From a virus, in the IMG/VR virus record IMGVR_UViG_3300037042_002568, positions 1 through 23,165 of that record: a DNA stretch of 23,165 bases; one strand, written 5' to 3'. The position numbers and the translations under genes were made by a program. The number at the start of each line of letters is the position of its first letter. Position 1 is the first letter of the stretch. Shown here piece after piece: positions 6,012 through 20,292 of the stretch. Under the pieces are notes generated by a model. The model was not told where the DNA came from. It was given only the letters and a program-made list of their open reading frames with translations, and searched no databases.

Positions 6012-7850
6012 TTAAGAGAAGTCTACCGTTCTTAATTGTTTTACTCTGACATTGATGTCCCTACTATCAAATCTAACTTGGTATATTTGGTCTGGTTCGG
6101 CAAAAATTGTATCATCAATTAATTCAATTTCTCTTGTTTCTTTATCAATGTATCTTTGGGATGTTTGAGACGATGAATATTGACCGCCAACCCTATTATA
6201 CACTTTAAGATCAGACAATGTAATTACACCTGCCGTGTTTTGAATTAATCTACGAACATCTGAAACATTTAAGTTTTGACCCAAATCCCGATTGGTTGGT
6301 CTCATATAGTTTGATATTTGGTCAATCACTTCGGTTATAATTTGACTTTGTGAGGTATTGTTCTCAATCACAATTGAAATTTCAAATTCCAAATCAATAA
6401 CTTTTGCAACATCAATTGATATATAATCATTTACCATTCTATACTTTGATAGGTAGGTTGCCAGATTTTGTTTTAGGGTATTGGCCACATTTTGAGTTAA
6501 GTTACCATCAGAATCATATGATAGGATTTGAACGACAACTTTATTATTATTTTCAGTAATCGCAACTTTAGCCGGTGCCCCAAATTTTCCAGGCATCGTA
6601 TCAATTAAAGATTTGTAATCATTAACGGTAACAGCTCGTTTTTGTGCCGCAAAATTAAATGATACCATATTTCTAACTTCCTCTGTTGTCGGTGGATTAG
6701 CACCACCCACCGCTGAGGTTACGTTGTTTACTTTAAGTGATCTGATAACATTTGAGTTCACCGTATCTGATGGTCCATTAACAACCATATTAACAGTACC
6801 AATTTGATTAATGGCACCAACACCTACGTTTGATGAGATTCCTCCACCAATTCTATATTGAATAAACAAGGTCGTATTTGGTGTAACAGTTAATCCCAAT
6901 CCAATGTTGTTTTGGTAATTTTGAATATTTAAAGGCACACCCAATTGAGCAAAATTTTGAAGTTGTTGGTTTGGTGTTGTTGTTCCTCCACCAAATTGTA
7001 TTTTCATATAACCTTCTGGAGTATATTCAGTTATAAATCTATTGTCGGTTTTTAAATACCTACCGACTTTTAATCCAGCCAAATCAATTGGTTTTGTTGG
7101 ATCCTCAATAAATACGGTATCTTCGGCCAAAGCATCGACTTCGTACCATTTATTTTGTGAGGTAACAAATTCTGAATCTGGTGGCGTTGATTGGTATTGT
7201 GTACCGTCTTTTTGGATAATGGCGGTAACACCTAATACATTTTTTTCTGGTAAAAAGAAATTAAAAAATGGTACAACATCGTTTGAATATATAACCCTTT
7301 TAAATACTTTTGTAACGCCGTTAACCACCACTTCCCTTTTTGTTATGGTATAACCCACAATTTTGTTTGTATTATCAAAAATTGGAATTTTGGTTCTGTT
7401 AACAAATCCTTCATTATTATATTGTGTTGAAAAATCAACGTCATATACCGTTTCAAATGTCTGACCGCCACCATTGAATTGTGCTCCAGATCTTAATATT
7501 CCCAAGTATCTCGTATCTTCACTATCACCAAAAGCCGGAACCTGAATGGATATATCGGCTAGAGCAACAGATGGTCTAAACCCAGGTATTTTAAGTCCAT
7601 AAGTTCTTGCGATGTTATAAATTGATGATCTTTGTTGGGCATATTGAAGAACGGTCTTCTGTATGCTTCTATCAATGTGGAAGTGTAGGTTGTCGCCAAT
7701 TGCCGCGTTTAAGTCCATTAATACAGAAAAAATGGACGCGTCATTGAAGTTTTGAATAACTTCTGGGTAATATTGTTGGGCATAATTTATCAAATCTTGT
7801 CTCAGACTTTCAAAATCTCTACTCGTATAATTAATTTTGTTTGTAGCCAT
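6012..7850 (-). CDS. gp6: Baseplate wedge protein, T4 gp6-like
   Basis: The 612-residue product begins MATNKINYTSRDFESLRQDL, close to the start that I know from T4-like gp6 proteins (a YTSRDF motif followed by an amphipathic helix and a YYPE motif). In T4, gp6 dimers form the inner ring of the baseplate wedge and drive the sheath-contraction switch; the family shares the Baseplate_J-type fold. T4 gp6 is 660 residues, so this is of normal length. It starts one base after gp25 ends, the same gp25-gp6 pairing found in many contractile tail operons. The C-terminal half (from about residue 400, with AQKRAVTVNDYKSLIDTMPG) fits the conserved core. Identification is from sequence character and gene order. 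Confidence 0.9.
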   Translation of the reverse strand: MATNKINYTSRDFESLRQDLINYAQQYYPEVIQNFNDASIFSVLMDLNAAIGDNLHFHIDRSIQKTVLQYAQQRSSIYNIARTYGLKIPGFRPSVALADISIQVPAFGDSEDTRYLGILRSGAQFNGGGQTFETVYDVDFSTQYNNEGFVNRTKIPIFDNTNKIVGYTITKREVVVNGVTKVFKRVIYSNDVVPFFNFFLPEKNVLGVTAIIQKDGTQYQSTPPDSEFVTSQNKWYEVDALAEDTVFIEDPTKPIDLAGLKVGRYLKTDNRFITEYTPEGYMKIQFGGGTTTPNQQLQNFAQLGVPLNIQNYQNNIGLGLTVTPNTTLFIQYRIGGGISSNVGVGAINQIGTVNMVVNGPSDTVNSNVIRSLKVNNVTSAVGGANPPTTEEVRNMVSFNFAAQKRAVTVNDYKSLIDTMPGKFGAPAKVAITENNNKVVVQILSYDSDGNLTQNVANTLKQNLATYLSKYRMVNDYISIDVAKVIDLEFEISIVIENNTSQSQIITEVIDQISNYMRPTNRDLGQNLNVSDVRRLIQNTAGVITLSDLKVYNRVGGQYSSSQTSQRYIDKETREIELIDDTIFAEPDQIYQVRFDSRDINVRVKQLRTVDFS

Positions 7851-7851
7851 A

Positions 7852-8316
7852 TTATATATTAATTATTATAAATTCTCTTGACCCAAAACCATTATTGTTA
7901 TTTGTATAGTCAATTCTTAATTTTGCGGTGTACTCTTCAGTGTTTGCACCTGGTACTCTATATATATCACTTGTTCCCAATAAGTCAGTATTTAATTCAC
8001 CGGGAGCTTCGTCTGATTGTAAATAGGGTGTGACAGATATGTTATTAATAATTAAATTTGGTATATATTTGTCAACTTGTTCTTGTATTTCAGCTTTAAT
8101 ACCTTCAAATGTCTCACCATCAAAAGGATCAAATATGAACTCATAAATTCTGGTTCCAAAATCCGGTAAATAATATCTACTACCCTTTCTTGTTAAAATT
8201 AAGTGTAATAGGTTTGATCTTATTTCTTCATCTGTTGTTTCTGACAATGAAAAATAATAACCGAGTGGATTGTTCCTAAAAGGAAAATTAACACCATATG
8301 TTGTTCCATCTGCCAT
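7852..8316 (-). CDS. gp25: Baseplate wedge protein, gp25/GPW family
   Basis: At 154 residues this has the size and pattern of the GPW/gp25 family: an N-terminal NPLGYYFSLSETTDEEIRSN segment, the conserved core LTRKGSRYYLPDFGTRIYEF, and the family's following helix with an Asp-Pro-Phe (FDPFDGETFEGIKAEIQEQV). In T4, gp25 sits in the wedge core and contacts the first sheath ring together with gp6 and gp53. It is placed immediately before gp6. The start ATG at 8316 follows a short AT-rich leader with no Shine-Dalgarno sequence. A terminator lies just upstream, so this gene probably opens a new baseplate transcription unit, although I cannot place its promoter. Confidence 0.92.
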   Translation of the reverse strand: MADGTTYGVNFPFRNNPLGYYFSLSETTDEEIRSNLLHLILTRKGSRYYLPDFGTRIYEFIFDPFDGETFEGIKAEIQEQVDKYIPNLIINNISVTPYLQSDEAPGELNTDLLGTSDIYRVPGANTEEYTAKLRIDYTNNNNGFGSREFIIINI

Positions 8317-8356
8317 ATTAATATAAATATAATGTGGTAGAATTTTGTTTTAAACA

Positions 8357-8384
8357 AAAAATCACCGATTACTCAGTGATTTTT
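8357..8384 (-). terminator. Hairpin terminator at the end of the replication/nucleotide module
   Basis: Arms AAAAATCAC (8357-8365) and GTGATTTTT (8376-8384) form a 9-bp stem with a 10-base loop. Read on the minus strand, the stem runs into T-rich sequence, as expected for Rho-independent termination. Because A and T runs flank both sides it could work in both directions. The stop codon of the DUF5522-like gene (8362-8364) lies inside the stem. It separates the replication genes from the gp25-gp6 baseplate genes. Confidence 0.65.
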
Positions 8385-8595
8385 CTTGTAAGTTTGTGTT
8401 TCCTTTTTCGTGTCTTGGTTCGTAAGGGCAATTTAAACAACCTGAACCACAACAACTTCCTCTTTTTATATGATATTCTTCGGTCATTACCATTCTTCCC
8501 TGGTTATCGTAATAGAAATCAGTTGGTTGTAATTTTGGACCAAACTCCCTAACGTAAAGTTGTTGTACCCAATCTTTAGATGCCCCTACATTCAT
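8362..8595 (-). CDS. DUF5522-like small cysteine-motif protein
   Basis: The product has 77 residues. The core, MVMTEEYHIKRGSCCGSGCL followed by NCPY, holds four cysteines (C48, C49, C53, C56) and matches the YHxxRGxCCGxGCxxCPY signature that I associate with DUF5522, a small family of unknown function common in Bacteroidota. The cysteines probably bind metal, which is inference. The N-terminal part (LQPTDFYYDNQGRMVMTEEY) also follows the family pattern, which supports the ATG at 8595, although a shorter start at residue 35 or 37 is possible. It lies downstream of the ribonucleotide reductase and ends inside a terminator stem. It is probably a host-derived gene kept by the phage. Confidence 0.75.
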   Translation of the reverse strand: MNVGASKDWVQQLYVREFGPKLQPTDFYYDNQGRMVMTEEYHIKRGSCCGSGCLNCPYEPRHEKGNTNLQEKSLSNR

Positions 8596-8596
8596 T

Positions 8597-8677
8597 TTAA
8601 TTTTTTTTTCTTAAATTATAGAACGCTAACAATACTTGATAAGTTAATGTTACGTTATTTCCCCAAGTTACTTTCAT
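8597..8677 (-). CDS. Possible 26-aa microprotein between nrdJ and the DUF5522-like gene
   Basis: An ATG at 8677, two bases after the nrdJ stop, opens a 26-codon frame (MKVTWGNNVTLTYQVLLAFY, then NLRKKN). It ends with TAA at 8597-8599, one base before the ATG of the next gene. The frame fills the gap almost exactly, which is the packing seen for real genes in this operon. Against it are its shortness and the lack of any family that I know. The middle is hydrophobic (TYQVLLAFYNL) and the end basic, so a small membrane-associated peptide is conceivable. Confidence 0.3.
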   Translation of the reverse strand: MKVTWGNNVTLTYQVLLAFYNLRKKN

Positions 8678-8679
8678 AA

Positions 8680-10548
8680 TTAAACAATTTCGCAACCAGA
8701 CGCGCCACAGGCTATTTCACCACTCAAATCGGTGTTATCTTGTAATTCAATTACTTTAGTTAAATTAACACCTGTTAAAGTTTTAACCAATTTTTCATAC
8801 TCTTCTTTTGAACAATCGGTAAAAGGTGCCTGGGTATAAGTACCCCCGTTATAAGGTAGGACAGATAAACCATTGTAATATTCTTTGTTATTCCACATCC
8901 AGTCACCAACTAAATCCCACTCATCTTCTTTAATTGAAACGGTCGCTGAAACGTTATGTGTGTTTTGTCCCGATCTATGTCCAGACTTAACCCACTCAGA
9001 TGAAACCTTTTTAACTCTTTCTAACATTTGAAATACGGATTCGTGTCTAACAATTGACCCCTCTGGTGCTCTTTGTGGTATAGTAATTACTGCGGTATCA
9101 TGTGGTCTAAAAAATTCATCCTCAATTAATTCGGGGTGATTAATTGCAAGATAAGAATAAATTGCTTCATTTTTTCCAACACGGATTCTTCTTAAATAAT
9201 AGTCATTATGCCAAGCGTGAATTCCAGATGAGGTTCCCAAAACTAAAGATGAAGTACCGGATGGTTTAACGGTCGTTGTTCTTGCGGATTTATTAATACC
9301 AATAAGGTTTGCAACTCTTTCGTTCTCCTCTTTAACCGCTTTTGCTGCTTTTTTCATATCATAACCCAAAACAACACCAGAACCAATACCTGTCATACCA
9401 ACACCAATAAGTGCGTCTTTTTCAGTTGTTCTTTTCCAAATATCTCTTAAATAGTGGAAGTCAGTGTAACCCGCTTGTAGTGTACCAATAAAAGAAGCCG
9501 CTCTAACTCTTTGTTCAAAATCTTCTTGTGATTCAATATCTGAAGCGTTTACCTCACATAAGTTACAGAATTGGAATGGTCTTAGTGCGATTTCACAACA
9601 AGGGTTTGTTCCCCAATCTTTATCGTTAGATAAATAAATTCCGGGTTCACCAGCACCAGATAACTCAATACGTTTCCATAAATTCATAAAAAACTCTTTA
9701 GTAATTTTATGACGAAGTAAAACCGCTGAGTTGTTTGCTCTACCTCTTTGTGGGTTTTGTTCCCACCAATTTCCCGACTTACAAGAAATCATTTCTTCAT
9801 CATCAGCTGAAAATAATGAAATAAGTGCTGCTCGTCTAATACCACCAGCAAGTACCGCATCTGCAATATGACAAACAATGTCGTGTGTTTCAATAGGTGT
9901 TAATCTTTCACCATCTTTTTTGTTATCCAAAACTTTAGTAATGTGATGAATACAATCCTTTAACGGTTGAGGCCCTGGTGCTTTTCCACCTGATGTTACA
10001 AGCATAGCACCTTTTTGTCTGATGTCCGAAAAATCAAATATTGGAGTTGATGATTTATATCCCAAGTAAGATTCCATTAATACTTTAATTGCATCAGCCC
10101 AACCTTCAATTGAGTCACCAATTAAATAACGTCTAGTTCTTTCTGGGTTTGGTTTTTTTATTTCTGGTAATTTTTCAACGTGATGTTTTTGCACTGAGTA
10201 ACCGACACCTGTACCACCTAAAAGTAAAAACATAGTTTCAGAAAAAGCATCAACGTGATCTATTGGCATATATGCACAATTGTAAACTCTGTTTGGTGAG
10301 ATTTCAATTGGTTTACCACCAAATTGTAGTGATCTCATTGACGGTAATATTTTTTTATCATACACCATTTTATACACCTCTTCTATCTCATCTTTAATGT
10401 GGGGGTACTTTCTTTGGTGCATTTCTTTGTTACGTGTTACAAGTTCTTCCCATGTTTCTCTTCGGTTAAGTTCGGGTTGAAACTTAGCGTATTTCATAAA
10501 GACAGTGATGTCACTTAATATTTTTTGCGAAATATCCATTTTATTCAA
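8680..10548 (-). CDS. nrdJ: Adenosylcobalamin-dependent (class II) ribonucleotide reductase
   Basis: The 622-residue protein belongs to the monomeric class II family typified by Lactobacillus leichmannii ribonucleoside-triphosphate reductase. It makes deoxynucleotides using a thiyl radical generated from coenzyme B12, without needing an oxygen-dependent subunit. The catalytic layout is intact: C91 is the first redox cysteine (VYNCAYMP); N315, C317 and E319 fit the thiyl-radical Cys with its Asn and Glu partners; C328 follows C317 by 11 residues, as expected for the second redox cysteine; and a C-terminal pair C614/C619 (ACGASGCEIV) would re-reduce the active site. The length is somewhat shorter than the 739-residue Lactobacillus enzyme. 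It follows the helicase gene by 15 bases and would supply precursors for phage replication. Extra cysteines at 318 and 331 lie beside the catalytic ones. Confidence 0.95.
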   Translation of the reverse strand: MNKMDISQKILSDITVFMKYAKFQPELNRRETWEELVTRNKEMHQRKYPHIKDEIEEVYKMVYDKKILPSMRSLQFGGKPIEISPNRVYNCAYMPIDHVDAFSETMFLLLGGTGVGYSVQKHHVEKLPEIKKPNPERTRRYLIGDSIEGWADAIKVLMESYLGYKSSTPIFDFSDIRQKGAMLVTSGGKAPGPQPLKDCIHHITKVLDNKKDGERLTPIETHDIVCHIADAVLAGGIRRAALISLFSADDEEMISCKSGNWWEQNPQRGRANNSAVLLRHKITKEFFMNLWKRIELSGAGEPGIYLSNDKDWGTNPCCEIALRPFQFCNLCEVNASDIESQEDFEQRVRAASFIGTLQAGYTDFHYLRDIWKRTTEKDALIGVGMTGIGSGVVLGYDMKKAAKAVKEENERVANLIGINKSARTTTVKPSGTSSLVLGTSSGIHAWHNDYYLRRIRVGKNEAIYSYLAINHPELIEDEFFRPHDTAVITIPQRAPEGSIVRHESVFQMLERVKKVSSEWVKSGHRSGQNTHNVSATVSIKEDEWDLVGDWMWNNKEYYNGLSVLPYNGGTYTQAPFTDCSKEEYEKLVKTLTGVNLTKVIELQDNTDLSGEIACGASGCEIV

Positions 10549-10563
10549 GTTTATTAGTTTATT

Positions 10564-12342
10564 TTATGATTCTTGTTGTTCTTTTAACTTCTTTTTTTCC
10601 AACAGTTCTTTAATTCTGTTCCTATTCTTTTCTTCTTTTTGTTCTTCGTGACCTAGAAACGTCACACTTTGTTCGGTATCAATTTCCAACATTCCGTTGT
10701 CAAATTTACAATTTTCAAACACGATACCATCTTTACCTATTCTGGATTTTGTGATGGCGATTGTTGCCAAATTCATTTCTTTTTGTTGTAGGGTTTTTGC
10801 TATAGTAATAATAACGTGTCCGACTTGTGCTTTCTTAATTGATCCACCCATTTGATCTGTTGTTACAACATCAGCAGAAATTGATGAGTTATGAGTATAG
10901 ATGTCATTAGCGTAGAACATATGGGTGTCATCAACTGTAATATCAATCGTTTCTTCTTCACCTATTAATTCTATTGAACTTACTAAATCCTCTAAGTAAT
11001 CATAAGTAGTTGTGTTATTTTTAACATACAAACTATTCCCAACTTCAAGTCCACTATTTATTGATTTTAAACCATCCAATGTTGGGAACTTATGTTTTGC
11101 GGACACTTTAATATCCTTACCACTTTTAGTTTTAATTTTGTAAACTGGTTGTTTTTCAATAGGAAATATATATGAGATATTTTTATATCCTTCGTGTGTT
11201 AAAATTTTGTCTCCTAGTTCAACATCTTTTATTTTAATTAAACCTTTGTTCTCAATATTGACAACAGTATCTAAACTAACACATCTATTTCCTTGTGTTG
11301 CTGTCCAACCAGCAATATCTAATTCGTGACACAAAGCTTCAAAGGCCCTCATAACCGATCCTTCACTTTTCCATTCATCACCGAGCATTTTATCTGGTAC
11401 AACACAATCAATATAATCTAAAATAATCATATCAACCTTAGTCCCTTCGGCTATCATTTTTCTAACTTGATTTTTTATTTGATTCATTGTTACTGTGTCT
11501 GATGGTAACTTTTTTAAAATCAACTTATTTTTTCTAGAGTTTTGAATGTATTTAACTCTTTCCATTACCTCTTCTTTATTTTCGGAAAGGTCATCTGGGT
11601 GTATACCTGTCCATAGGGTAAAGTGTTTTCTCTGGATGATTTTTGGGTTGTCTTCAAAGAAAATTTGAAGAACATTATACCCTAAATTAAAGGCGTGATT
11701 GGCGATTTTAGTGGTGCAGGTAGACTTTCCAACACCGGTCGGCGCGAGAATAACCCCAATCTCACCCTTGGCCAAACCACCCTTTAAAAGGTTGTCAATA
11801 CCTGGAATTCCAAGTGGAATTGGGTGTCTAAAATCATCATCCAATACCTCATCCAAATTAAAAAATACATCCGTTGTTCCCTTATCTACTTCACCAACTT
11901 GAAGTGCTCCCCTTACCATTTCTTCCAACTTATCATAACTTTCAAAATCACCTTTATCAATGATTGATTGAGCCTTTGTCATTACTTTTTGGAGTTCTTG
12001 TTGTTTGCAGAATTTAAGAGATTTTTCTTGAACAAAAATGGAACCCTCATCCGATACATTCCTTACCTGATCTATTGTATCCAAAACACTCCTTTGTGCC
12101 ATCGGTGAACTGATTTCGGATTTGGTTAATTGTTCCAATGTATCAAACGTTGGTGTATGTTCATACTTTAAATAATATTCCTTTATCATCTGACAGATGA
12201 TTTTAAAATATTGGTTATCAAAATAATGTGGTTCAATAACTTCAATGATGGAATTAGCAAAATCCTTGTAAGTTACAATGTTATTTAACAGTTGAATTTG
12301 GAAGGTATTTCCTAAGTATCCGAAGTTTTTTTTGTCTGACAT
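10564..12342 (-). CDS. gp41: Replicative DNA helicase (T4 gp41 / DnaB family) containing a mini-intein
   Basis: The 592-residue precursor is a DnaB-type helicase interrupted by an in-frame intein. The N-extein (1-353) has a DnaB-like N-terminal domain, a Walker A motif at about 200-208 (APTGVGKST) and a Walker B region at MIILDYID (305-312). The C-extein (486-592) continues with SSISADVVTTDQMGGS and ends in a charged Lys/Glu-rich tail. After splicing, the helicase would be 460 residues, close to T4 gp41 (475). It unwinds the fork on the lagging strand and recruits primase. The intein lies directly after the TQGNR of the conserved H4-type DNA-binding motif, so the unspliced protein should be inactive. 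The gene sits between the 150-residue unknown and nrdJ. Confidence 0.93.
   Translation of the reverse strand: MSDKKNFGYLGNTFQIQLLNNIVTYKDFANSIIEVIEPHYFDNQYFKIICQMIKEYYLKYEHTPTFDTLEQLTKSEISSPMAQRSVLDTIDQVRNVSDEGSIFVQEKSLKFCKQQELQKVMTKAQSIIDKGDFESYDKLEEMVRGALQVGEVDKGTTDVFFNLDEVLDDDFRHPIPLGIPGIDNLLKGGLAKGEIGVILAPTGVGKSTCTTKIANHAFNLGYNVLQIFFEDNPKIIQRKHFTLWTGIHPDDLSENKEEVMERVKYIQNSRKNKLILKKLPSDTVTMNQIKNQVRKMIAEGTKVDMIILDYIDCVVPDKMLGDEWKSEGSVMRAFEALCHELDIAGWTATQGNRCVSLDTVVNIENKGLIKIKDVELGDKILTHEGYKNISYIFPIEKQPVYKIKTKSGKDIKVSAKHKFPTLDGLKSINSGLEVGNSLYVKNNTTTYDYLEDLVSSIELIGEEETIDITVDDTHMFYANDIYTHNSSISADVVTTDQMGGSIKKAQVGHVIITIAKTLQQKEMNLATIAITKSRIGKDGIVFENCKFDNGMLEIDTEQSVTFLGHEEQKEEKNRNRIKELLEKKKLKEQQES
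10888..11283 (-). other. In-frame mini-intein (132 aa) in the gp41 helicase, gp41-1-like
   Basis: Residues 354-485 of the helicase precursor form a complete splicing domain without a homing endonuclease. Block A starts CVSLDTVVNI with the nucleophile Cys1. Block B is GKDIKVSAKHKF with its conserved His. Block F is DDTHMFYAND, and block G ends YTHN followed by Ser+1. From memory, the spacing and the motifs GYxxxxxxFP, LYVK and HxFYANDIxTHN match the split intein gp41-1, which comes from environmental phage helicases, except that both halves are joined here. All residues needed for splicing are present, so I expect it to be active. Confidence 0.9.
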
Positions 12343-13843: not shown

Positions 13844-14855
13844 TGATTATTTCATTAAGGGGGTTTGACAATACTGGTTTGTTTTTTGAAATATAATCTG
13901 AGAAGAACTCAGAAAAAATAGCTTCCATTACCGGGACACAAATTGAGTTTCCGGCCAAAGATACATGGGCGGTGTTTGATAACGATGTTGATAGTAACAA
14001 ATCAATATCTTCTTCTTTAACACCCATAAACCGATATCCTTCCCTTGCGGTGATGGTTCTTACACGACCATCTTCTGTCATAATTTGGGGTGAACCACTT
14101 GTCGTTAAAGTTGGGGAACACCCGTCAACCGAATAAATCCTTCTGGCTTGATCATAACTTATGTCATCCCTTCTTGCGATTAATCTACAAATGGTATCCT
14201 TTTTTGGTTGGTGAGGTGTGTATGTACAATCAACAATTAAGTCGGGATTAAAATTTTCATCAATAAATGAACGCATCGGAACTCTCGGTTTTTTGTGATT
14301 GTTTACATTTTCCATTTTTTGTTTGATCTCGTCTGAGTCTCCGTGTAATACTGAAATCATAAAAACACGCTCTCTATTTTGGGGGCAACCAAAATCAGCT
14401 CCGTTTAAAAGTTTCCAATAAGATGTGTAACCTAAAGCTCGTAAGTAATAGATGTGTTTTTGGAAGTTATCAATGTGGTTTTTGGAAACAAGGTTTTTGA
14501 CATTTTCCATAAGTAGATACTTCGGTCTATTAGTTGAAAGGATTCTCTCAACATCAAACAATAATCCACTTCTTGTCCCTTCTTTTATCCCTTGTTGATT
14601 TCCAGAAATTGAAATATCTTGACACGGGAAGGAGTATGTTAATAGGTCACATTCCGGAAAGGTTGTCTCATCAATTTTTTTAATATCACCCAAATTTCCG
14701 TTTGTTGTTTTGTGTAAGGCATCATAACATTCATTGGCCGGTCTGAAGTTGTCACAATTGGCAACAACCTCATAATCCACCCCAATATATTTAAGTGCCA
14801 ACTCCTGCGTTCCGTAACCGGAAAATAATGATATTACTTTTAGCTTTTTGTCCAT
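13836..14855 (-). CDS. DNA (cytosine-5-)-methyltransferase
   Basis: All hallmark motifs of a C5 methyltransferase are present in 339 residues: motif I binding S-adenosylmethionine (SLFSGYGTQELA, 9-20), the catalytic PCQ with C78, ENV at 117-119, QNRERVF at 159-165, motif IX around RRIYSVDGCSPTLTT (238-252) and motif X AGNSICVPV (301-309). The target-recognition region lies between about 170 and 237; its site cannot be read from sequence. The protein looks full length and active. It may protect phage DNA from host restriction or pair with the nuclease gene just upstream. It starts 40 bases after that gene and overlaps the flap nuclease by 8 bases. Confidence 0.95.
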   Translation of the reverse strand: MDKKLKVISLFSGYGTQELALKYIGVDYEVVANCDNFRPANECYDALHKTTNGNLGDIKKIDETTFPECDLLTYSFPCQDISISGNQQGIKEGTRSGLLFDVERILSTNRPKYLLMENVKNLVSKNHIDNFQKHIYYLRALGYTSYWKLLNGADFGCPQNRERVFMISVLHGDSDEIKQKMENVNNHKKPRVPMRSFIDENFNPDLIVDCTYTPHQPKKDTICRLIARRDDISYDQARRIYSVDGCSPTLTTSGSPQIMTEDGRVRTITAREGYRFMGVKEEDIDLLLSTSLSNTAHVSLAGNSICVPVMEAIFSEFFSDYISKNKPVLSNPLNEIIND

Positions 14856-14895
14856 TTGTTTTTTTAATTAAAAATATAAAATTTTAATGAAAAAT

Positions 14896-15798
14896 TCAAT
14901 CTATATTTTCATTAAGTTTTTTAATTCTTTCTTCATATTTAAGTTTGTATCTTTCAATCCAAACCAAATCACCATTTAAATATAACGAAGTTATTTCGTC
15001 ATCAGATAAAATAGGTACTGTTCTCAATTTGTATATTAAACCGTTTTTTTCACAAAACTCTTTAGCCGCCGTCGCTTTTAACTCTACTAAATTAGTTTTC
15101 CATAATTTTTTAGGTTTACATTCAATCATATATTTATTGTCTAATATAAAATCTGGATGATAGTTCTTTGTTGATTCTTTATATTCAAAAATTATCTTAT
15201 AATTACTATTTTCCCCAGTTTCCCACTTTATTTTGTGTTTCTCAATAACATTAACCATATATGATAATTCTAGTAAACTTCTAAAATACCAACCTTTATA
15301 CCACCCAGACCATCCATTACCCGAACCATAAGGGGGTGTTTTACCATACCAATAATTTTTTTCACCCTTTTGCCCAACTTTTGATGCCCATTCTTTTTTT
15401 CTCTGGTCAGCAATTTCTACTCCATATTTTTCAACACATATCGTATACCAAGATTTCCCCTTCATCGGTGGGTTTTTTTTCATATACTCACTAATATATT
15501 TACGATACTCTTCCGACTTTATTTTTTCGTAATACTTTTTCCTTTCCTCACTATTGTTTGAGGTTTCAATCATTTTTTCCATTGACTCCTTTGTGTGTTT
15601 TTTATTAAAGAAGGGATTTCTTTCACCTTTTTTAACACAAGAAGAACATAGTCCAGGATATTTAGATTTTCTTAATGATAATTTGTAAGTCGTTCTTTGA
15701 GTAAAGTTAATCACTTTTCCACATTCTTTACAATTAATATAACAGGGTGTTTTATAACCTATAGTTCCCTCACATTTAGTACAAATTTTCGTTTCCAT
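14896..15798 (-). CDS. Zinc-finger/NUMOD3/PD-(D/E)XK nuclease, probable free-standing homing endonuclease
   Basis: Three parts can be seen in 300 residues. The N-terminus is a zinc-ribbon-like region (C6/C9, C24/C27, C51/C54). NUMOD3-like DNA-binding repeats follow at about 58-75 (GERNPFFNKKHTKES) and 145-153 (GEKNYWYGK). The C-terminus is a PD-(D/E)XK nuclease core: E177 in RSLLELSYM, P215-D216 in YHPDF, and E226-x-K228 in MIECKPK. Zinc finger plus NUMOD modules are typical of phage homing endonucleases, which cut a site in element-free relatives. The next gene is a cytosine methyltransferase, so a restriction-type partner is the alternative. The start overlaps the ribbon-helix-helix gene by 23 bases. 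The coding strand is richer in A and Lys codons than its neighbours, as expected for an acquired gene. Confidence 0.85.
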   Translation of the reverse strand: METKICTKCEGTIGYKTPCYINCKECGKVINFTQRTTYKLSLRKSKYPGLCSSCVKKGERNPFFNKKHTKESMEKMIETSNNSEERKKYYEKIKSEEYRKYISEYMKKNPPMKGKSWYTICVEKYGVEIADQRKKEWASKVGQKGEKNYWYGKTPPYGSGNGWSGWYKGWYFRSLLELSYMVNVIEKHKIKWETGENSNYKIIFEYKESTKNYHPDFILDNKYMIECKPKKLWKTNLVELKATAAKEFCEKNGLIYKLRTVPILSDDEITSLYLNGDLVWIERYKLKYEERIKKLNENID

Positions 15799-15940
15799 TT
15801 TTAATATATTCTTTCAATAGTTTATTAACTAGGGAAGAAAGATTAATGTGTTTATTCCTAATATAATTAAGTATTTCTGGTTCCATCGCCACAGAAATAC
15901 TTTTCTTTTTTTTATCAGTTTCCACTTTAACCCTTCCCAT
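15776..15940 (-). CDS. Small ribbon-helix-helix (Arc/MetJ/CopG-type) DNA-binding protein, 54 aa
   Basis: An ATG at 15940 opens a 54-codon frame ending at TAA 15776-15778. The product starts MGRVKVETDKKKKSISVAME and continues PEILNYIRNKHINLSSLVNK, then LLKEYIKNGNENLY. The pattern, a short beta strand (KSISVAM), helix A (EPEILNYIRN), a turn with LSSL and helix B (VNKLLKEYI), is that of ribbon-helix-helix repressors, which bind DNA as dimers through the paired strands. It overlaps the nuclease start by 23 bases in another frame, so the two are probably co-translated. A perfect 12-base palindrome lies just upstream, which suggests self-repression. The function is inferred from the fold pattern. 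Confidence 0.75.
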   Translation of the reverse strand: MGRVKVETDKKKKSISVAMEPEILNYIRNKHINLSSLVNKLLKEYIKNGNENLY

Positions 15941-15950
15941 ATTATAATAA

Positions 15951-15962
15951 ATATCTAGATAT
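15951..15962. promoter_or_regulatory. 12-bp perfect palindrome, candidate operator of the ribbon-helix-helix protein
   Basis: ATATCTAGATAT is a perfect inverted repeat centred about 16 bases upstream of the ribbon-helix-helix start codon and about 35 bases after the uvsX stop. Its position between uvsX and the nuclease cassette suits an operator bound by the small regulator. AT-rich DNA yields such palindromes by chance fairly often, so binding is inference. Confidence 0.4.
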
Positions 15963-15992
15963 ATTAAAAAATGTTATTTTAAACAATTTTTT

Positions 15993-16979
15993 TCATTCAA
16001 AATCATCATTTTGTGATTCTTCAAGTGAAAAATCAGTTCCTTCCATCTTTGTCACCCAATAATCAGCAAATTCTTTTTTATACTTGTCTATCGCTTCTTT
16101 CGTGTCATGCACATATCCATTATGAACTGCAAGAATTTTGCCATCCTTAAAACCAAGGCCGTTCACGTGATTTTTTAAAATTGAAATTCTAGTTCTAATT
16201 GCGAATGAAACCTTTCTTCCGTTTTTCGTTGCGTCAATATGATTAATTCCCGCCTTTTTCTGTTTACCAAACAAAAACACCAAACTACTAGCTAACCATA
16301 TTGCCTCACCACCTTTCGCGCGAATTTCAGGCTGTGATAGAGGCGAAGACATATCAACATCCGTCCATGGTTGGTTAATTATAACCAAGGTGTTGTAATA
16401 CGGATAATCTTCTTTTTTTGATTTTGTTATTCTTGAATGAATCCCCTGACCTATTGTGTCGGCCAATACTGAAGCGTTTGCCATTTTACCACCTCTACCT
16501 TCATATGTCATCTTACATGGAATACTCCCCACTGAGTCCCATAAAAATACAATATTATATGGGATATCCCCCTTTTCTTGTGCGTCCAAGATGTCATTTA
16601 TATATTCTGTCGCTTGTTCAATATAATCAAACGAATCATTAAAAATAAACATTCCTTCCCACTCACCATCTTCGTTTTTTTTTGCATCTAAACCTAACTC
16701 AACGGCATGGTCCCATGACCATTTTTTTTCGGTAATAATAAATACCGGTAAATGTCCCTTACGTTGTGCGTCAGCGGCTGCCAAAATCATTGCTGTCGTT
16801 TTTGAGGAATTTGAAAAACCTAAGAACATCGAAATGTGACCCATTACAGGTCCAGGTAATCCGCACGCATCCATAAAGGCTTCTCCACAATTATAAAACT
16901 GGGTTTCCTTGTATTTTGTTTTTGTGGAAAATTTATTTTTTATATCATTAAAATTGATTTCCTTCTTCTTGATTGCCAT
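15993..16979 (-). CDS. uvsX: RecA-like recombinase UvsX
   Basis: The 328-residue protein has a RecA-type core: a Walker A loop at 54-62 (GFSNSSKTT), a glutamate-containing strand at FIITEKKW, Walker B at YNIVFLWDSVGS (141-152) and a RecA L2-like region near VIINQPWTDV. The P-loop lacks the usual Gly before Lys, like T4 UvsX (GPSKSFKS), which supports a UvsX rather than bacterial RecA assignment. UvsX coats single-stranded DNA bound by gp32 and drives strand exchange, repair and recombination-dependent replication. Length is below T4 UvsX (391). Its start overlaps the 104-residue gene by 32 bases, and gp32 is two genes upstream. The C-terminal tail is acidic. Confidence 0.92.
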   Translation of the reverse strand: MAIKKKEINFNDIKNKFSTKTKYKETQFYNCGEAFMDACGLPGPVMGHISMFLGFSNSSKTTAMILAAADAQRKGHLPVFIITEKKWSWDHAVELGLDAKKNEDGEWEGMFIFNDSFDYIEQATEYINDILDAQEKGDIPYNIVFLWDSVGSIPCKMTYEGRGGKMANASVLADTIGQGIHSRITKSKKEDYPYYNTLVIINQPWTDVDMSSPLSQPEIRAKGGEAIWLASSLVFLFGKQKKAGINHIDATKNGRKVSFAIRTRISILKNHVNGLGFKDGKILAVHNGYVHDTKEAIDKYKKEFADYWVTKMEGTDFSLEESQNDDFE

Positions 16980-17274: not shown

Positions 17275-18126
17275 TTAGAAAGGTAAGTCCTCAGAGGGTT
17301 CATCATTTGCTTGTGGGTCAACAACCACCACTTCTTCTTCTTTTTGTGCGCCACCCAATGAGATTTCGGCTTCTTCACCATAAACATATTTTTTAAGTTC
17401 AGAATTCCAAATTGGTGTTTCACCAACCGCGACTGCCTCCAAATATTCAACTGGTTTTTTGGAGTATACATCATTCCAAGTTAATTCATCTTGTGACCAA
17501 CCTTCTTTGATTTCTTTATCTTCGTGAAGTGGTGATGGGTCATCGTACATAATTGTTTGAATAACCGTGTACTCTTTTCCTTGTGGTGTTTTTGCCTTAA
17601 TTAACTCAATAATTAAATCTCTACCTTTTTCAGAATCTGTAACATCACCTTTTGCTTTCCAGATTGGTAAGATTTTATCCAATACACCCTCCTGTTTGTA
17701 GTTGTGTTTGAATCTCCAAAATTTAACACCGTCTTGTTCGTTGTCTCTGTCAATCACTTTAACAATATAAAACAAACGTGATCTGTATTGTGAGGCCAAA
17801 TCTTTATCCTCTTTCTTTCCTGTTTGGATAAGTTCATTATAAACTTCCGTTAGTGGTGATCTTTCGTTGTCGTTTTTGTCTGGGTCATACAACTTAACCC
17901 ATTGCCCATTAACTTGAATCTCGTGATACCAAACCTCAACGAATGGTGATGAACCATCTTTTGTTGGTAAAATTCTAATTCTTTTTTGGGCTGATTTTTC
18001 ATTCTTCTGAAGGATTGCTGAAAAATACTTTTTCATTCTGTCCTCTTGTGAAATGTTTTGTCTTTGTGAACTCGGTTGTGAGTTCTTCTCGTACTGTGCC
18101 AGTACCGCATCAATTGAGTTTGCCAT
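17275..18126 (-). CDS. gp32: Single-stranded DNA-binding protein, T4 gp32-like
   Basis: Taking the ATG at 18126, the product has 283 residues starting MANSIDAVLAQYEKN. The N-terminal basic region, the OB-fold core (KRIRILPTKDGSSPFVEVWY, then KFWRFKHNYKQEG) and the acidic tail ending EPSEDLPF match gp32, whose acidic tail contacts UvsX, gp41 loading factors and polymerase. A longer frame exists up to a GTG at 18180, but those 18 codons run into the mobile-element end, so I reject that start. The protein contains no cysteine, so the zinc module of T4 gp32 is absent. The gene is separated from its probable promoter by the inserted tnpB element. Confidence 0.92.
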   Translation of the reverse strand: MANSIDAVLAQYEKNSQPSSQRQNISQEDRMKKYFSAILQKNEKSAQKRIRILPTKDGSSPFVEVWYHEIQVNGQWVKLYDPDKNDNERSPLTEVYNELIQTGKKEDKDLASQYRSRLFYIVKVIDRDNEQDGVKFWRFKHNYKQEGVLDKILPIWKAKGDVTDSEKGRDLIIELIKAKTPQGKEYTVIQTIMYDDPSPLHEDKEIKEGWSQDELTWNDVYSKKPVEYLEAVAVGETPIWNSELKKYVYGEEAEISLGGAQKEEEVVVVDPQANDEPSEDLPF

Positions 18127-18164
18127 AGATTTTTGTTTTAAATTTTTATCTCTTTTATCTGACT

Positions 18165-18209
18165 CCACCGAAAAACCCACAAATCTTTAGTTTGTGGGAT
18201 GTAAGGTGG
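18165..18209 (+). repeat. Left-end hairpin of the tnpB element
   Basis: An 8-bp stem CCCACAAA (18176-18183) / TTTGTGGG (18191-18198) has a 7-base loop and is enclosed by an outer stem CCACC (18165-18169) / GGTGG (18205-18209). Loop and stem foot resemble those of the right end (AAACCCA...TCTTTA...TGGGA). Read on the minus strand, the inner stem is followed by TTTTT, so it could also stop transcription coming from the gp32 promoter. Confidence 0.75.
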
Positions 18210-18309
18210 TTATTAAACATAATAATAAATAGAATTTTTTAATAAATCAATAACTTTTTGGTTTTTCCATATATTTATATATATATAGAGAAATCTAACA
18301 CAATATAAA

Positions 18310-19548
18310 ATGAAAACATATACAATAAGACTTTTCCCATCACAAGAACAAATATCAAAACTTAACAAGTTGTCAGATATTCGTATGGATGTGTGGAATA
18401 CACTTATTGATACACAACAAAAAGAATACGAAGAAAAAAAGAAAATATATCGTAAATTTGATTTAATTAATCTATTACCAGAATTAAAAAATACCATTAA
18501 ACCTGAATGGAAAGAGTTAAATGCTAAAGCTATACAAACAATCGCTACTGAAGTTTCACAATCTTACCAATCATTTTTTACTTTAATTAAAAAAGATAAA
18601 ACAACAAGACCACCTAAACAAAAAGAACTTGGAAAATATCATACATTAACTTTTAACCAATCAGGATGGATATTCAGAGATGATAAAATTATTATAAATC
18701 AAATTCCATTTGATTATAAAACAAATTTAACAAATATTTCAAAATTAAACATTAAAGAAATTAGAGTTAAAAACAAGAATAACAAATGGTTGTGTGATAT
18801 TGTTGTTAATGATAAGAACGAATATATTGATGAAAAACTAATTAAAACAAAAGTTTTATCCATAGATTTAGGACTTAAAAATTTAGGAACTGGTGTGGAT
18901 AATAAAGGAAATGTAATAATTCTAAAAAATAAATCTAAAAAAATTAATCAATATTTTTCTAAACAAATAGATAAGATTAAATCTAAATTATCTAAAAAAG
19001 AAAAAGGAAGTAAAAATTATTTTAAACTAAATCAAGTTAAGAAAAAACTATATTCTAAAAAGAACTCACAAATAAAACAAACTCTACATATTCAGAGTAA
19101 AAAATTAACGAATATGAACTACAAAACAATTGTAGTTGGTGAATTGACAATTAAATCTTTAATGTCTACAGAAGGTGTTAATAAAAACAAAAAAGGTATT
19201 AGAAAATCATTTAATGAATCTAATATTAATATGTTTTTACAATTTCTTAAATATAAATCACAACATAAATTAATAGATGTTATTAAAATAGATGAGAAAT
19301 ACACAACACAACTTAATTCTTTAACTGGAAGAATGTTTAAAGAAAAGGTAGGATTAAAAGATAGAGTTGTTAAATTAAATGATAATGTTGTAATAGATAG
19401 AGATTTAAATTCAGCAATTAATATTATGAAAAGATATTACGACAATCATCTTGCTTCTATGACAGAGCCACTGGATTATTCCAGTGTAATTATGAACAAC
19501 AATGTTTGTAATAACCAATCCTTAATTAGGAAACCCATCGTTCTTTAA
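18310..19548 (+). CDS. tnpB: RNA-guided endonuclease TnpB (IS605 OrfB family), zinc ribbon degenerate
   Basis: The 412-residue protein starts MKTYTIRLFPSQEQISKLNK, a typical TnpB N-terminus. RuvC motifs are intact: D186 in LSIDLGLKNL, E278 in VVGELTIKSL and D363/D365 in VIDRDLNSAINI. TnpB is the ancestor of Cas12: it uses an omega RNA made from the element's 3' end to cut DNA that matches the flanking guide next to a target-adjacent motif. The four cysteines of the usual zinc ribbon, expected between about 334 and 360, are absent; the corresponding segment reads TTQLNSLTG... KLNDNVVIDRD. Only two cysteines exist elsewhere (162, 400). The gene is very A-rich, runs against all its neighbours, and its stop codon lies within the right-end hairpin. 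Confidence 0.92.
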   Translation: MKTYTIRLFPSQEQISKLNKLSDIRMDVWNTLIDTQQKEYEEKKKIYRKFDLINLLPELKNTIKPEWKELNAKAIQTIATEVSQSYQSFFTLIKKDKTTRPPKQKELGKYHTLTFNQSGWIFRDDKIIINQIPFDYKTNLTNISKLNIKEIRVKNKNNKWLCDIVVNDKNEYIDEKLIKTKVLSIDLGLKNLGTGVDNKGNVIILKNKSKKINQYFSKQIDKIKSKLSKKEKGSKNYFKLNQVKKKLYSKKNSQIKQTLHIQSKKLTNMNYKTIVVGELTIKSLMSTEGVNKNKKGIRKSFNESNINMFLQFLKYKSQHKLIDVIKIDEKYTTQLNSLTGRMFKEKVGLKDRVVKLNDNVVIDRDLNSAINIMKRYYDNHLASMTEPLDYSSVIMNNNVCNNQSLIRKPIVL

Positions 19549-19567
19549 ACGATGGGAGGATGTCATC
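19400..19567 (+). ncRNA. Predicted omega RNA scaffold of TnpB (5' end approximate)
   Basis: In IS605 elements the guide RNA is made from the 3' end of tnpB through the right end, with the guide copied from flanking DNA. Here the tnpB 3' region holds a strong hairpin CACTGGA (19469-19475) / TCCAGTG (19480-19486) inside the coding frame, a small TCCT/AGGA stem at 19519-19531, and the right-end hairpin at 19534-19556. The guide would begin near 19568. The 5' limit is a guess and no expression evidence is available. Confidence 0.5.
19534..19556 (+). repeat. Right-end hairpin of the tnpB element
   Basis: Arms CCCATCGT (19534-19541) and ACGATGGG (19549-19556) form an 8-bp stem, 9 bp if the T-A pair at 19542/19548 is counted. 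The tnpB stop TAA (19546-19548) lies in the loop. It mirrors the left-end hairpin in loop sequence and in the CCCA/TGGG foot. Confidence 0.8.
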
Positions 19568-19572
19568 TCTAA

Positions 19573-19602
19573 CAAGTATAAGTGATTTTTTTGTATTGTC
19601 AA
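19573..19602 (-). promoter_or_regulatory. Probable promoter of the gp32-uvsX unit, Bacteroidota type
   Basis: On the minus strand TTGACA (19602-19597) is followed after 16 bases by TATACT, and the whole reads TTG-N19-TATACTTG (19580-19573). That fits the Bacteroidota -33/-7 pattern TTG-N19-TAnnTTTG with one mismatch, and also a sigma70-type promoter. It lies directly after the upstream terminator and points at gp32. The mobile element now begins a few bases beyond the expected start of transcription. Confidence 0.65.
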
Positions 19603-19606
19603 ATAA

Positions 19607-19633
19607 AAAAGGGAACCTTGTGGGCTCCCTTTT
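19607..19633 (-). terminator. Rho-independent terminator after the 212-aa gene
   Basis: Arms AAAAGGGA (19607-19614) and TCCCTTTT (19626-19633) pair, extended by two G-C pairs after one mismatch, with a small loop. On the minus strand the hairpin leads into TTTTTTA. It ends the upstream tail-protein unit 20 bases after the 212-residue gene and separates it from the gp32 promoter. Confidence 0.85.
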
Positions 19634-19653
19634 CTTTAATAATTCTTTAATTA

Positions 19654-20292
19654 TTATTCTTCCGTTTCATCGTAAATATTAAAGGTTTTTTTAACTTCGT
19701 TTGGTGAAAAATTCTCCACTTCATCTGATGTTAAAACATATTCGTTTTTTCCTGTTTTTTCCATTTCAACTTGTTTGTCGTCAAAAAAATCTGTTAACTT
19801 TTGATTGTATGGGTATGAATCCAATGATCTTAACATTAATTTTTCTTCCGGAGTTTTATCTCTGTATTTGTCAAACTTGCTTTCAAGGTTTTGGATTCTG
19901 TTTAATATTTCATCCATTCCTTCAAGTTTTGATTGCAAATCATCCAATCTTCTGAACATGCTATCCATAAACGCTTCTTGTTTGTCTTTAATGTCCATTT
20001 GAGTTGAAACTAAATCCGTGATGTCAATTTCTTCTTCTCCACCCTCTTCAGTTGTTGTTTCTTCTGCTCCAATTTCTTCAACATCCGGATCCGTTGTTAC
20101 ATCTACTGGTTCTGGGACTTCAGTTCCTGTTGGTGCTGGTGGTGTCGCAGCGTCTGGTGCTGGTGGTGGTGTATCCGCTAAACCAGGTTCTGGTGCTGGT
20201 GGTAAAACCGGTGGTTCTTGTTCATTTAATACATATGTATTAATCTGATTGAACCTTTTTAATTCCTCCAATATTTTTCTATCTAAACTCAT
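19654..20292 (-). CDS. Pro/Ala-rich acidic coiled-coil protein, 212 aa, function unknown
   Basis: The protein starts MSLDRKILEELKRFNQINTY. Residues about 26-58 are a flexible Pro/Ala linker, 60-90 are strongly acidic (Glu/Thr-rich), and 95-145 form a likely coiled coil (LVSTQMDIKDKQEAFMDSMF, then LDDLQSKLEGMDEILNRIQN). The C-terminal 60 residues look like a small folded domain (LTDFFDDKQVEMEKTGKNEY). There is no signal peptide or membrane segment. It follows the large tail-type gene and the 75-residue gene and is closed by a strong terminator. A structural-assembly or scaffold-like role is conceivable from the coiled coil, but I do not recognise the family. Confidence 0.8.
   Translation of the reverse strand: MSLDRKILEELKRFNQINTYVLNEQEPPVLPPAPEPGLADTPPPAPDAATPPAPTGTEVPEPVDVTTDPDVEEIGAEETTTEEGGEEEIDITDLVSTQMDIKDKQEAFMDSMFRRLDDLQSKLEGMDEILNRIQNLESKFDKYRDKTPEEKLMLRSLDSYPYNQKLTDFFDDKQVEMEKTGKNEYVLTSDEVENFSPNEVKKTFNIYDETEE
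20131..20203. repeat. Three copies of a 13-base Pro/Ala-coding repeat
   Basis: TGGTGCTGGTGGT occurs at 20131-20143, 20155-20167 and 20191-20203 within the 212-residue gene. On the coding strand it encodes Pro-Pro-Ala-Pro units of the linker. The stretch is clearly richer in G and C than its surroundings, and repeats of this kind can change copy number by slippage. Confidence 0.7.

What the first reader, a model, noticed from the sequence alone, without database searches (positions are those of the whole stretch)
18160..19602. TnpB element split from its host by the gp32 promoter: guide would target the gp32 leader of element-free phages
The element sits between the only clear promoter for gp32 and the gp32 start. 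In IS605 systems the omega RNA takes its guide from the DNA right after the right end. Here that DNA (about 19568-19587) contains the -10 box of the gp32 promoter. TnpB should therefore cut related phage genomes lacking the insert at an essential replication gene's promoter, giving the element a homing-like drive during co-infection. Seen: hairpin ends, tnpB, promoter position. Known: how TnpB picks its guide. Inferred: the targeting and the drive.
Basis: partly seen in the sequence, partly recalled or inferred. Interest (0 to 1): 0.8.

Follow-up and report, generated by a model that had tools for sequence, protein, structure and literature searches.

The report
RNA-guided jumping gene inside gp32 promoter
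A small tnpB-only transposon sits exactly at the transcription start of a phage's essential gp32 gene, and its RNA guide is copied from that gene's promoter, so it could in principle cut rival phages that lack it, although its guide carries one mismatch, near the motif, to every empty site found.

Summary
A tnpB-only IS200/IS605-type element (18159-19566, ends ambiguous by 2 nt) lies between the gp32 promoter and gp32. The empty site was recovered from a phage 99% identical in gp32 (L001): CTCTTTTAT|CTATAACAAG..., so the element follows TTTAT and the DNA after its right end is gp32's core promoter. Two relatives of this tnpB, at other sites, also follow TTTAT, and one copy's guide matches its empty site for 13 nt; 20 of 20 related left-end hairpins in phage contigs follow TTTAT. 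The promoter is Bacteroidota-type and its predicted start (19568) coincides with the junction. TnpB has D186, D365 and a relocated glutamate (E329), has lost its zinc finger, and is under purifying selection. The omega-RNA scaffold shows compensatory changes.

The homing claim is only partly supported. The guide's third base mismatches all 74 empty sites resolved here; in a studied TnpB a mismatch at positions 1-13 impairs cutting. The gp32 insertion is a singleton, so nothing shows drive. Divergent DNA beside the insert fits arrival by recombination but is not proof. TnpB homing itself was proposed in 2021 and shown on plasmids; this is a new phage instance.

The parts
18154..18158 (+). TTTAT target / transposon-adjacent motif; lies in the invariant gp32 leader (minus strand GATAAAAGAG)
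   Evidence: Empty site in L001; same motif left of the tnpB copies L083 and L081 and of 20 of 20 LE hairpins; conserved in all 74 gp32 relatives resolved
18159..18209 (+). Left end with imperfect hairpin CCACCGAAAAACCCACAAA...TTTGTGGGATGTAAGGTGG
   Evidence: DNA fold z -3.95; near-identical hairpin in 20 phage loci, each 6 nt after TTTAT; terminator-like toward gp32 at 18198-18176
18270..18278 (+). TATATTTAT, promoter-like 9-mer 40 nt upstream of tnpB, shared with phage genes
   Evidence: The three minus-strand copies in the window all lie within 40 nt upstream of an ORF start
18310..19548 (+). tnpB, 412 aa; D186, E329 (alternative position) and D365; canonical Glu position is G277; zinc-finger Cys absent
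   Evidence: Pfam PF01385/PF07282/PF12323; NCBIfam guided_TnpB 154.8 bits, cut-off 100; best structural match TnpB 8h1j; residues; dN/dS 0.09-0.19
19459..19566 (+). Predicted omega-RNA scaffold (overlaps the 3' end of tnpB); the right end TGTCAT pairs with ATGACA at 19459-19464
   Evidence: RNA fold z -4.74; 4 compensatory pair changes and 4 broken pairs of 36 against L081
19534..19556 (+). Right-end hairpin CCCATCGTTCTTTAAACGATGGG, followed by AGGATGTCAT (end of element 19566)
   Evidence: AGGATGTCAT conserved in L081/L082
19567..19586 (+). Predicted guide CTCTAACAAGTATAAGTGAT (host flank)
   Evidence: Position after the conserved right end; 1 mismatch (base 3) to the L001 empty site
19573..19603 (-). 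gp32 promoter: -33 TTTG (19603-19600), -7 box TATACTTG (19580-19573); predicted start at about 19568
   Evidence: box position -12 to -5 from PMC9723704
17275..18126 (-). gp32 single-strand DNA-binding protein
   Evidence: Pfam PF08804, 55.8 bits; PHROGs SSB

Best explanation
This is a tnpB-only (IS1341-like), non-autonomous element of the IS200/IS605 kind in a T4-like phage that, from its promoters, infects Bacteroidota. It entered the phage immediately 3' of a TTTAT in the gp32 leader, exactly at the predicted transcription start. Shown by sequence comparison: the ends, the target motif TTTAT, the empty site, the guide position and the conservation of TnpB. Inferred: TnpB and its omega RNA form a complex whose guide is the gp32 core promoter and which can recognise TTTAT plus promoter in phages lacking the insert. 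A cut there during co-infection would be repaired from the insert-bearing genome, copying the element together with flanking DNA, as a free-standing homing endonuclease does. Cutting of the relatives sampled here is probably inefficient, because the guide mismatches all of them at base 3. Moves to new TTTAT sites need a Y1 transposase (TnpA) supplied by another element; complete elements with tnpA and the same left end occur in related phages. Side effect, inferred: the native gp32 promoter now fires antisense into the element and meets a terminator-like hairpin before gp32.
For: Empty site and exact junction. Two independent relatives of this tnpB at other TTTAT sites with empty-site relatives: L083 vs L165 after gp6, L081 vs L087 before gp25; the L081 guide matches the empty site for the first 13 nt. 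LE hairpin 20 of 20 after TTTAT. TTTAT occurs at 0.0038 per position in the window, so chance is remote. Complete LE-tnpA-tnpB-RE elements in related phages. TnpB family and fold. Alternative Glu E329 with D-L-G RuvC-I motif, as described for E-alt TnpBs. dN/dS 0.09 and 0.19. Scaffold covariation. Window against L001: 99-100% identity over most of the shared sequence, but 86% in the 630 bp right of the insert.
Against: Guide base 3 mismatches all 74 empty alleles, and seed mismatches impair another TnpB. The insert at gp32 is seen once only. The zinc finger is gone, so activity is not certain. The divergent patch next to the insert could be ordinary phage mosaicism: about a third of the shared 100-bp bins are below 95% identity, and the first 260 bp on the left are 99% identical. 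The window record is a fragment, so a tnpA elsewhere in the same phage cannot be excluded.
Confidence: 0.72

Rival explanations
1. Passive IS relic: the element arrived by trans-mobilised transposition or by phage recombination, and TnpB/omega RNA have no present effect on other phages, because the guide mismatches every empty allele.
For: Base-3 mismatch to all 74 relatives; singleton at gp32; LE hairpin absent in the sibling copies L081 and L083, as expected for elements losing mobility.
Against: tnpB is intact in all complete copies, with dN/dS 0.09-0.19, and the omega scaffold is conserved with compensatory changes, so selection has acted on the lineage.
Confidence: 0.4
2. Nuclease-dead, TldR-like repressor: TnpB with its promoter-directed guide blocks gp32 transcription of competing phages instead of cutting them.
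For: The guide covers the core promoter; the canonical RuvC-II glutamate is replaced by G277; phage-borne TldRs that target promoters exist (PMC13418256).
Against: E329 sits at the alternative Glu position (six residues before the zinc-finger position) described for E-alt TnpBs, and is kept in L081; D186 and D365 are intact; the guide lies where any IS605 guide would lie; seed mutations also relieve TldR repression.
Confidence: 0.12
3. The LE and RE hairpins serve the phage mainly as transcription terminators, and the element is kept as a regulatory insert that lowers gp32 expression.
For: One terminator-like site toward gp32 at 18198-18176 against 0.2 expected.
Against: The hairpin is the common LE of a mobile family at many unrelated sites; lowering gp32 has no evident benefit.
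Confidence: 0.05

Closest known systems
IS200/IS605 tnpB-only elements (IS1341 group); ISDra2 TnpB
   Same: Subterminal hairpins at both ends, insertion 3' of a fixed T-rich motif without clear target duplication, tnpB overlapping the omega RNA, guide taken from the right flank (PMC8612924)
   Different: Target motif TTTAT instead of TTGAT; no tnpA; TnpB 18-19% identical to ISDra2 TnpB in the structural alignment; canonical Glu moved to E329; no zinc-finger cysteines; carried by a T4-like phage
Complete IS605-type elements of related phages (L300, L308)
   Same: Almost identical left-end hairpin and the same TTTAT target
   Different: They have tnpA, a cargo gene, a zinc-finger TnpB (about 26% identical) and a different right end (TAGTTCAC)
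TnpB gene drive on plasmids (PMC11870625) and TnpB homing (PMC8612924)
   Same: Element-bearing molecules would cut element-free ones and be copied across
   Different: Not demonstrated here; co-infecting phages instead of plasmids; guide mismatch at base 3
Free-standing homing endonucleases of T4-like phages
   Same: Intergenic, next to essential genes, embedded in divergent patches between otherwise near-identical phages
   Different: RNA-guided; site specificity changes with each insertion
TldR repressors
   Same: Phage-borne TnpB relatives with promoter-directed guides
   Different: RuvC acidic residues retained in an alternative arrangement; no associated regulated gene

Membership tests
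IS200/IS605 superfamily, tnpB-only element | TnpB protein with OrfB/TNB domains | tested here: met
   Pfam and NCBIfam above cut-offs; fold
IS200/IS605 superfamily, tnpB-only element | Subterminal imperfect hairpins at both ends | tested here: met
   z -3.95 and -3.75; LE shared with complete elements
IS200/IS605 superfamily, tnpB-only element | Insertion directly 3' of a fixed short motif, flanks joined in empty relatives | tested here: met
   TTTAT at three sites with empty relatives, 20 of 20 LEs
IS200/IS605 superfamily, tnpB-only element | Mobilised by Y1 transposase TnpA | tested here: inconclusive
   No Y1_Tnp in the window record (fragment) or in the L001 and L081 records; present in related phages with the same LE
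RNA-guided TnpB nuclease | RuvC catalytic D-E-D | tested here: met
   D186, E329 (alternative), D365 by alignment; geometry not measured in the model
RNA-guided TnpB nuclease | Omega RNA from the right end with the flank as guide | tested here: inconclusive
   Fold and compensatory changes; no RNA data
RNA-guided TnpB nuclease | Guided DNA cleavage next to the TAM | not testable with these tools
   Needs an assay
Homing element / gene drive | Guide matches element-free alleles | tested here: inconclusive
   1 mismatch in L001, 2 in nine others, never 0; 13-nt match for the sibling L081
Homing element / gene drive | Spread at the same site in several phages | tested here: inconclusive
   None of the 74 resolved relatives carries it at gp32, but only the best 80 loci were returned
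TldR (nuclease-dead TnpB) | Loss of RuvC catalytic acidic residues | tested here: not met
   D186 and D365 kept; E329 at the alternative position

The most novel reading that the evidence does not exclude
An RNA-guided homing element of a T4-like phage whose guide reads the core promoter of an essential replication gene, so that co-infecting phages are both disabled at gp32 and converted. Its target motif lies in an invariant leader, so it is hard to escape.
Probability: 0.25. Interest if true: 0.75.

Novelty: new member of a known kind. Interest (0 to 1): 0.5.

Why it matters
TnpB homing has been shown on plasmids, but a natural phage case with a mapped empty site, target motif and guide would let phage-against-phage RNA-guided drive be tested directly. 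The TnpB is also unusual: the glutamate is at the alternative position, the zinc finger is lost, and it rides on IS605-type ends.

Tried and rejected
Rfam scan of the window at gathering thresholds: nothing. Exact search for the window's RE hairpin plus GGATGTCAT in viral contigs: none. LE hairpin pattern and family TnpB profile in GTDB genomes: none, so no bacterial source was found. INPHARED phages: only TnpBs below 60% identity, most 24-32%, no DNA match to the element, and one distant gp32 match. A wider profile search for this tnpB found only L081-L083. Considered a target duplication (ATCT in the window, ATTTATTA in L081): rejected as a rule because the lengths differ and the shared part is explained by TTTAT and GTCAT. 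Considered a replacement promoter for gp32 inside the element: none by the Bacteroidota-type matrix; sigma-70-type hits are at chance level (12 against 12.4). Considered a TldR reading because G277 replaces the canonical Glu: set aside after finding E329.

Full report
What is there. The window is a 23,165-base virus record with gp32, a UvsX-like recombinase, a DnaB-like helicase and baseplate genes, so a T4-like phage. gp32 is on the minus strand (17275-18126). Upstream of it, on the plus strand, is tnpB (18310-19548), flanked by a left-end hairpin (18165-18209) and a right-end hairpin (19534-19556).

Empty site. Among 80 gp32 relatives in IMG/VR, L001 encodes a gp32 99% identical to the window's. 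In tnpB orientation its site reads CTCTTTTAT|CTATAACAAGTATAAGTGATTTTT. The window reads CTCTTTTAT|CTGACTCCACCG... on the left and ...AGGATGTCAT|CTCTAACAAGTATAAGTGATTTTT on the right. The element is therefore 18159-19566. The repeated CT leaves 2 nt of ambiguity, which the sibling copy L081 (...AGGATGTCAT|TTATTACC) resolves.

Target motif. Two relatives of this tnpB lie elsewhere: L083 (94% identical over 319 aa, contig cut) after a gp6-like gene, and L081/L082 (79%) before a gp25-like gene. Their empty relatives L165 and L087 show that both follow TTTAT as well. The L081 guide TTATTACCATTTT matches the L087 empty site for 13 nt before the first difference. A pattern search for the window's left-end hairpin found 20 stretches in phage contigs; all 20 have TTTAT six bases before the hairpin. 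TTTAT occurs at 0.0038 per position in the window.

Family. Several of those phages carry complete elements: LE, a small cargo gene, tnpA (Y1, opposite strand), a zinc-finger tnpB and an RE ending TAGTTCAC (L300, L308). The window element shares their left end but has a different tnpB (about 26% identical) and a different right end, and no tnpA in this fragment. I read it as a tnpB-only element of the IS200/IS605 kind that needs TnpA in trans to change sites; that last step is inference.

Protein. The TnpB scores 154.8 bits against NCBIfam guided_TnpB (cut-off 100). The AlphaFold2 model (mean pLDDT 77.9, pTM 0.51) best matches TnpB 8h1j (Z 21.1 over 345 residues). The overall rmsd is large (20.9), which suggests a different arrangement of the two lobes in the model; the N-terminal part alone matches at 2.3 A (8ex9). 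D186 and D365 align with ISDra2 D191 and D361 (ISDra2 numbering from general knowledge and the alignment). The canonical RuvC-II Glu is G277. E329 lies six residues before the first zinc-finger position, which is the alternative position described in PMC10711439; it is kept in L081. All zinc-finger cysteines are lost. dN/dS is 0.09 against L083 and 0.19 against L081.

RNA. The 167-nt right end plus flank folds 4.7 SD below shuffles; the L081 copy folds only 1.9 SD below. Of 36 scaffold pairs, 32 stay paired in L081, 4 through changes on both sides. The last element bases, TGTCAT, pair with ATGACA inside tnpB in both copies.

Promoter. In 51 of 51 distinct relatives a TTTG, 19 or 20 bases and a TA box stand 4-5 nt before AGATAAAAGAG. 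This matches the flavobacterial sigma-A type, whose TAnnTTTG box occupies -12 to -5 (PMC9723704). On that rule gp32 transcription in the window starts at about 19568, one base beyond the element. The insert thus separates the whole promoter from the whole leader, and the guide is the core promoter. The left-end hairpin is terminator-like toward gp32, and no replacement promoter was found in the element.

Does it home? TTTAT is conserved in all 74 relatives whose site was resolved, but the window guide's base 3 (C) is matched by none of them: L001 has one mismatch, nine have two, the rest three or more. For ISFba1 TnpB a single mismatch at positions 1-13 abolished or impaired cutting (PMC11061315). 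Either C arose after insertion, or the matching allele is unsampled. The insertion is a singleton at gp32. On the other side, the window and L001 are 99-100% identical over most of their shared length but only 86% identical in the 630 bp right of the insert, and two other divergent patches hold an intein and a NUMOD3 endonuclease that L001 lacks. That is what co-conversion would leave, but about a third of all shared bins are divergent, so chance cannot be excluded.

Known or new. TnpB homing was proposed with the discovery of its nuclease (PMC8612924), and a TnpB gene drive was shown on plasmids (PMC11870625). The paper searches did not turn up a described phage case at an essential promoter; subscription papers are largely missing from that library.

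Noticed in passing
L303 (LE at about 5298, RE at about 3510, minus strand): Element with the same LE, a 476-aa cargo ORF, no tnpB or tnpA, but the last 44 tnpB codons, omega-RNA scaffold and a guide kept at the right end: possibly a cargo element that borrows TnpB and TnpA in trans. L286-L289 show the same remnant.
   Followed up: partly
L300, L308, L305: Complete IS605-type elements in phages carrying a small extra gene whose protein begins MKK(V/I)(V/I)RLTESDL(T/V)R; the same start occurs on other cargo proteins.
   Followed up: no
L083, L178, L189/L295: GATAATTTAT just after the gp6-like gene: The same TTTAT is occupied by three different TnpB elements in different phages, an insertion hot spot.
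   Followed up: partly
window 6500-12300, 14600-16900, 17400-20200 against L001: Divergent patches in otherwise near-identical phages, with an intein in the DnaB-like helicase (about 10885-11290) and a NUMOD3 endonuclease gene (14896-15798) present in the window only.
   Followed up: partly
window 20556, 12377, 8331 (minus), 18270 (plus): 9-mer TATATTTAT 13-40 nt upstream of ORF starts, including tnpB: a likely phage promoter element.
   Followed up: partly
window 17500-17900: The middle of gp32 is 91% identical to L001 at DNA level while the protein is 99% identical and both gene ends are nearly identical.
   Followed up: no
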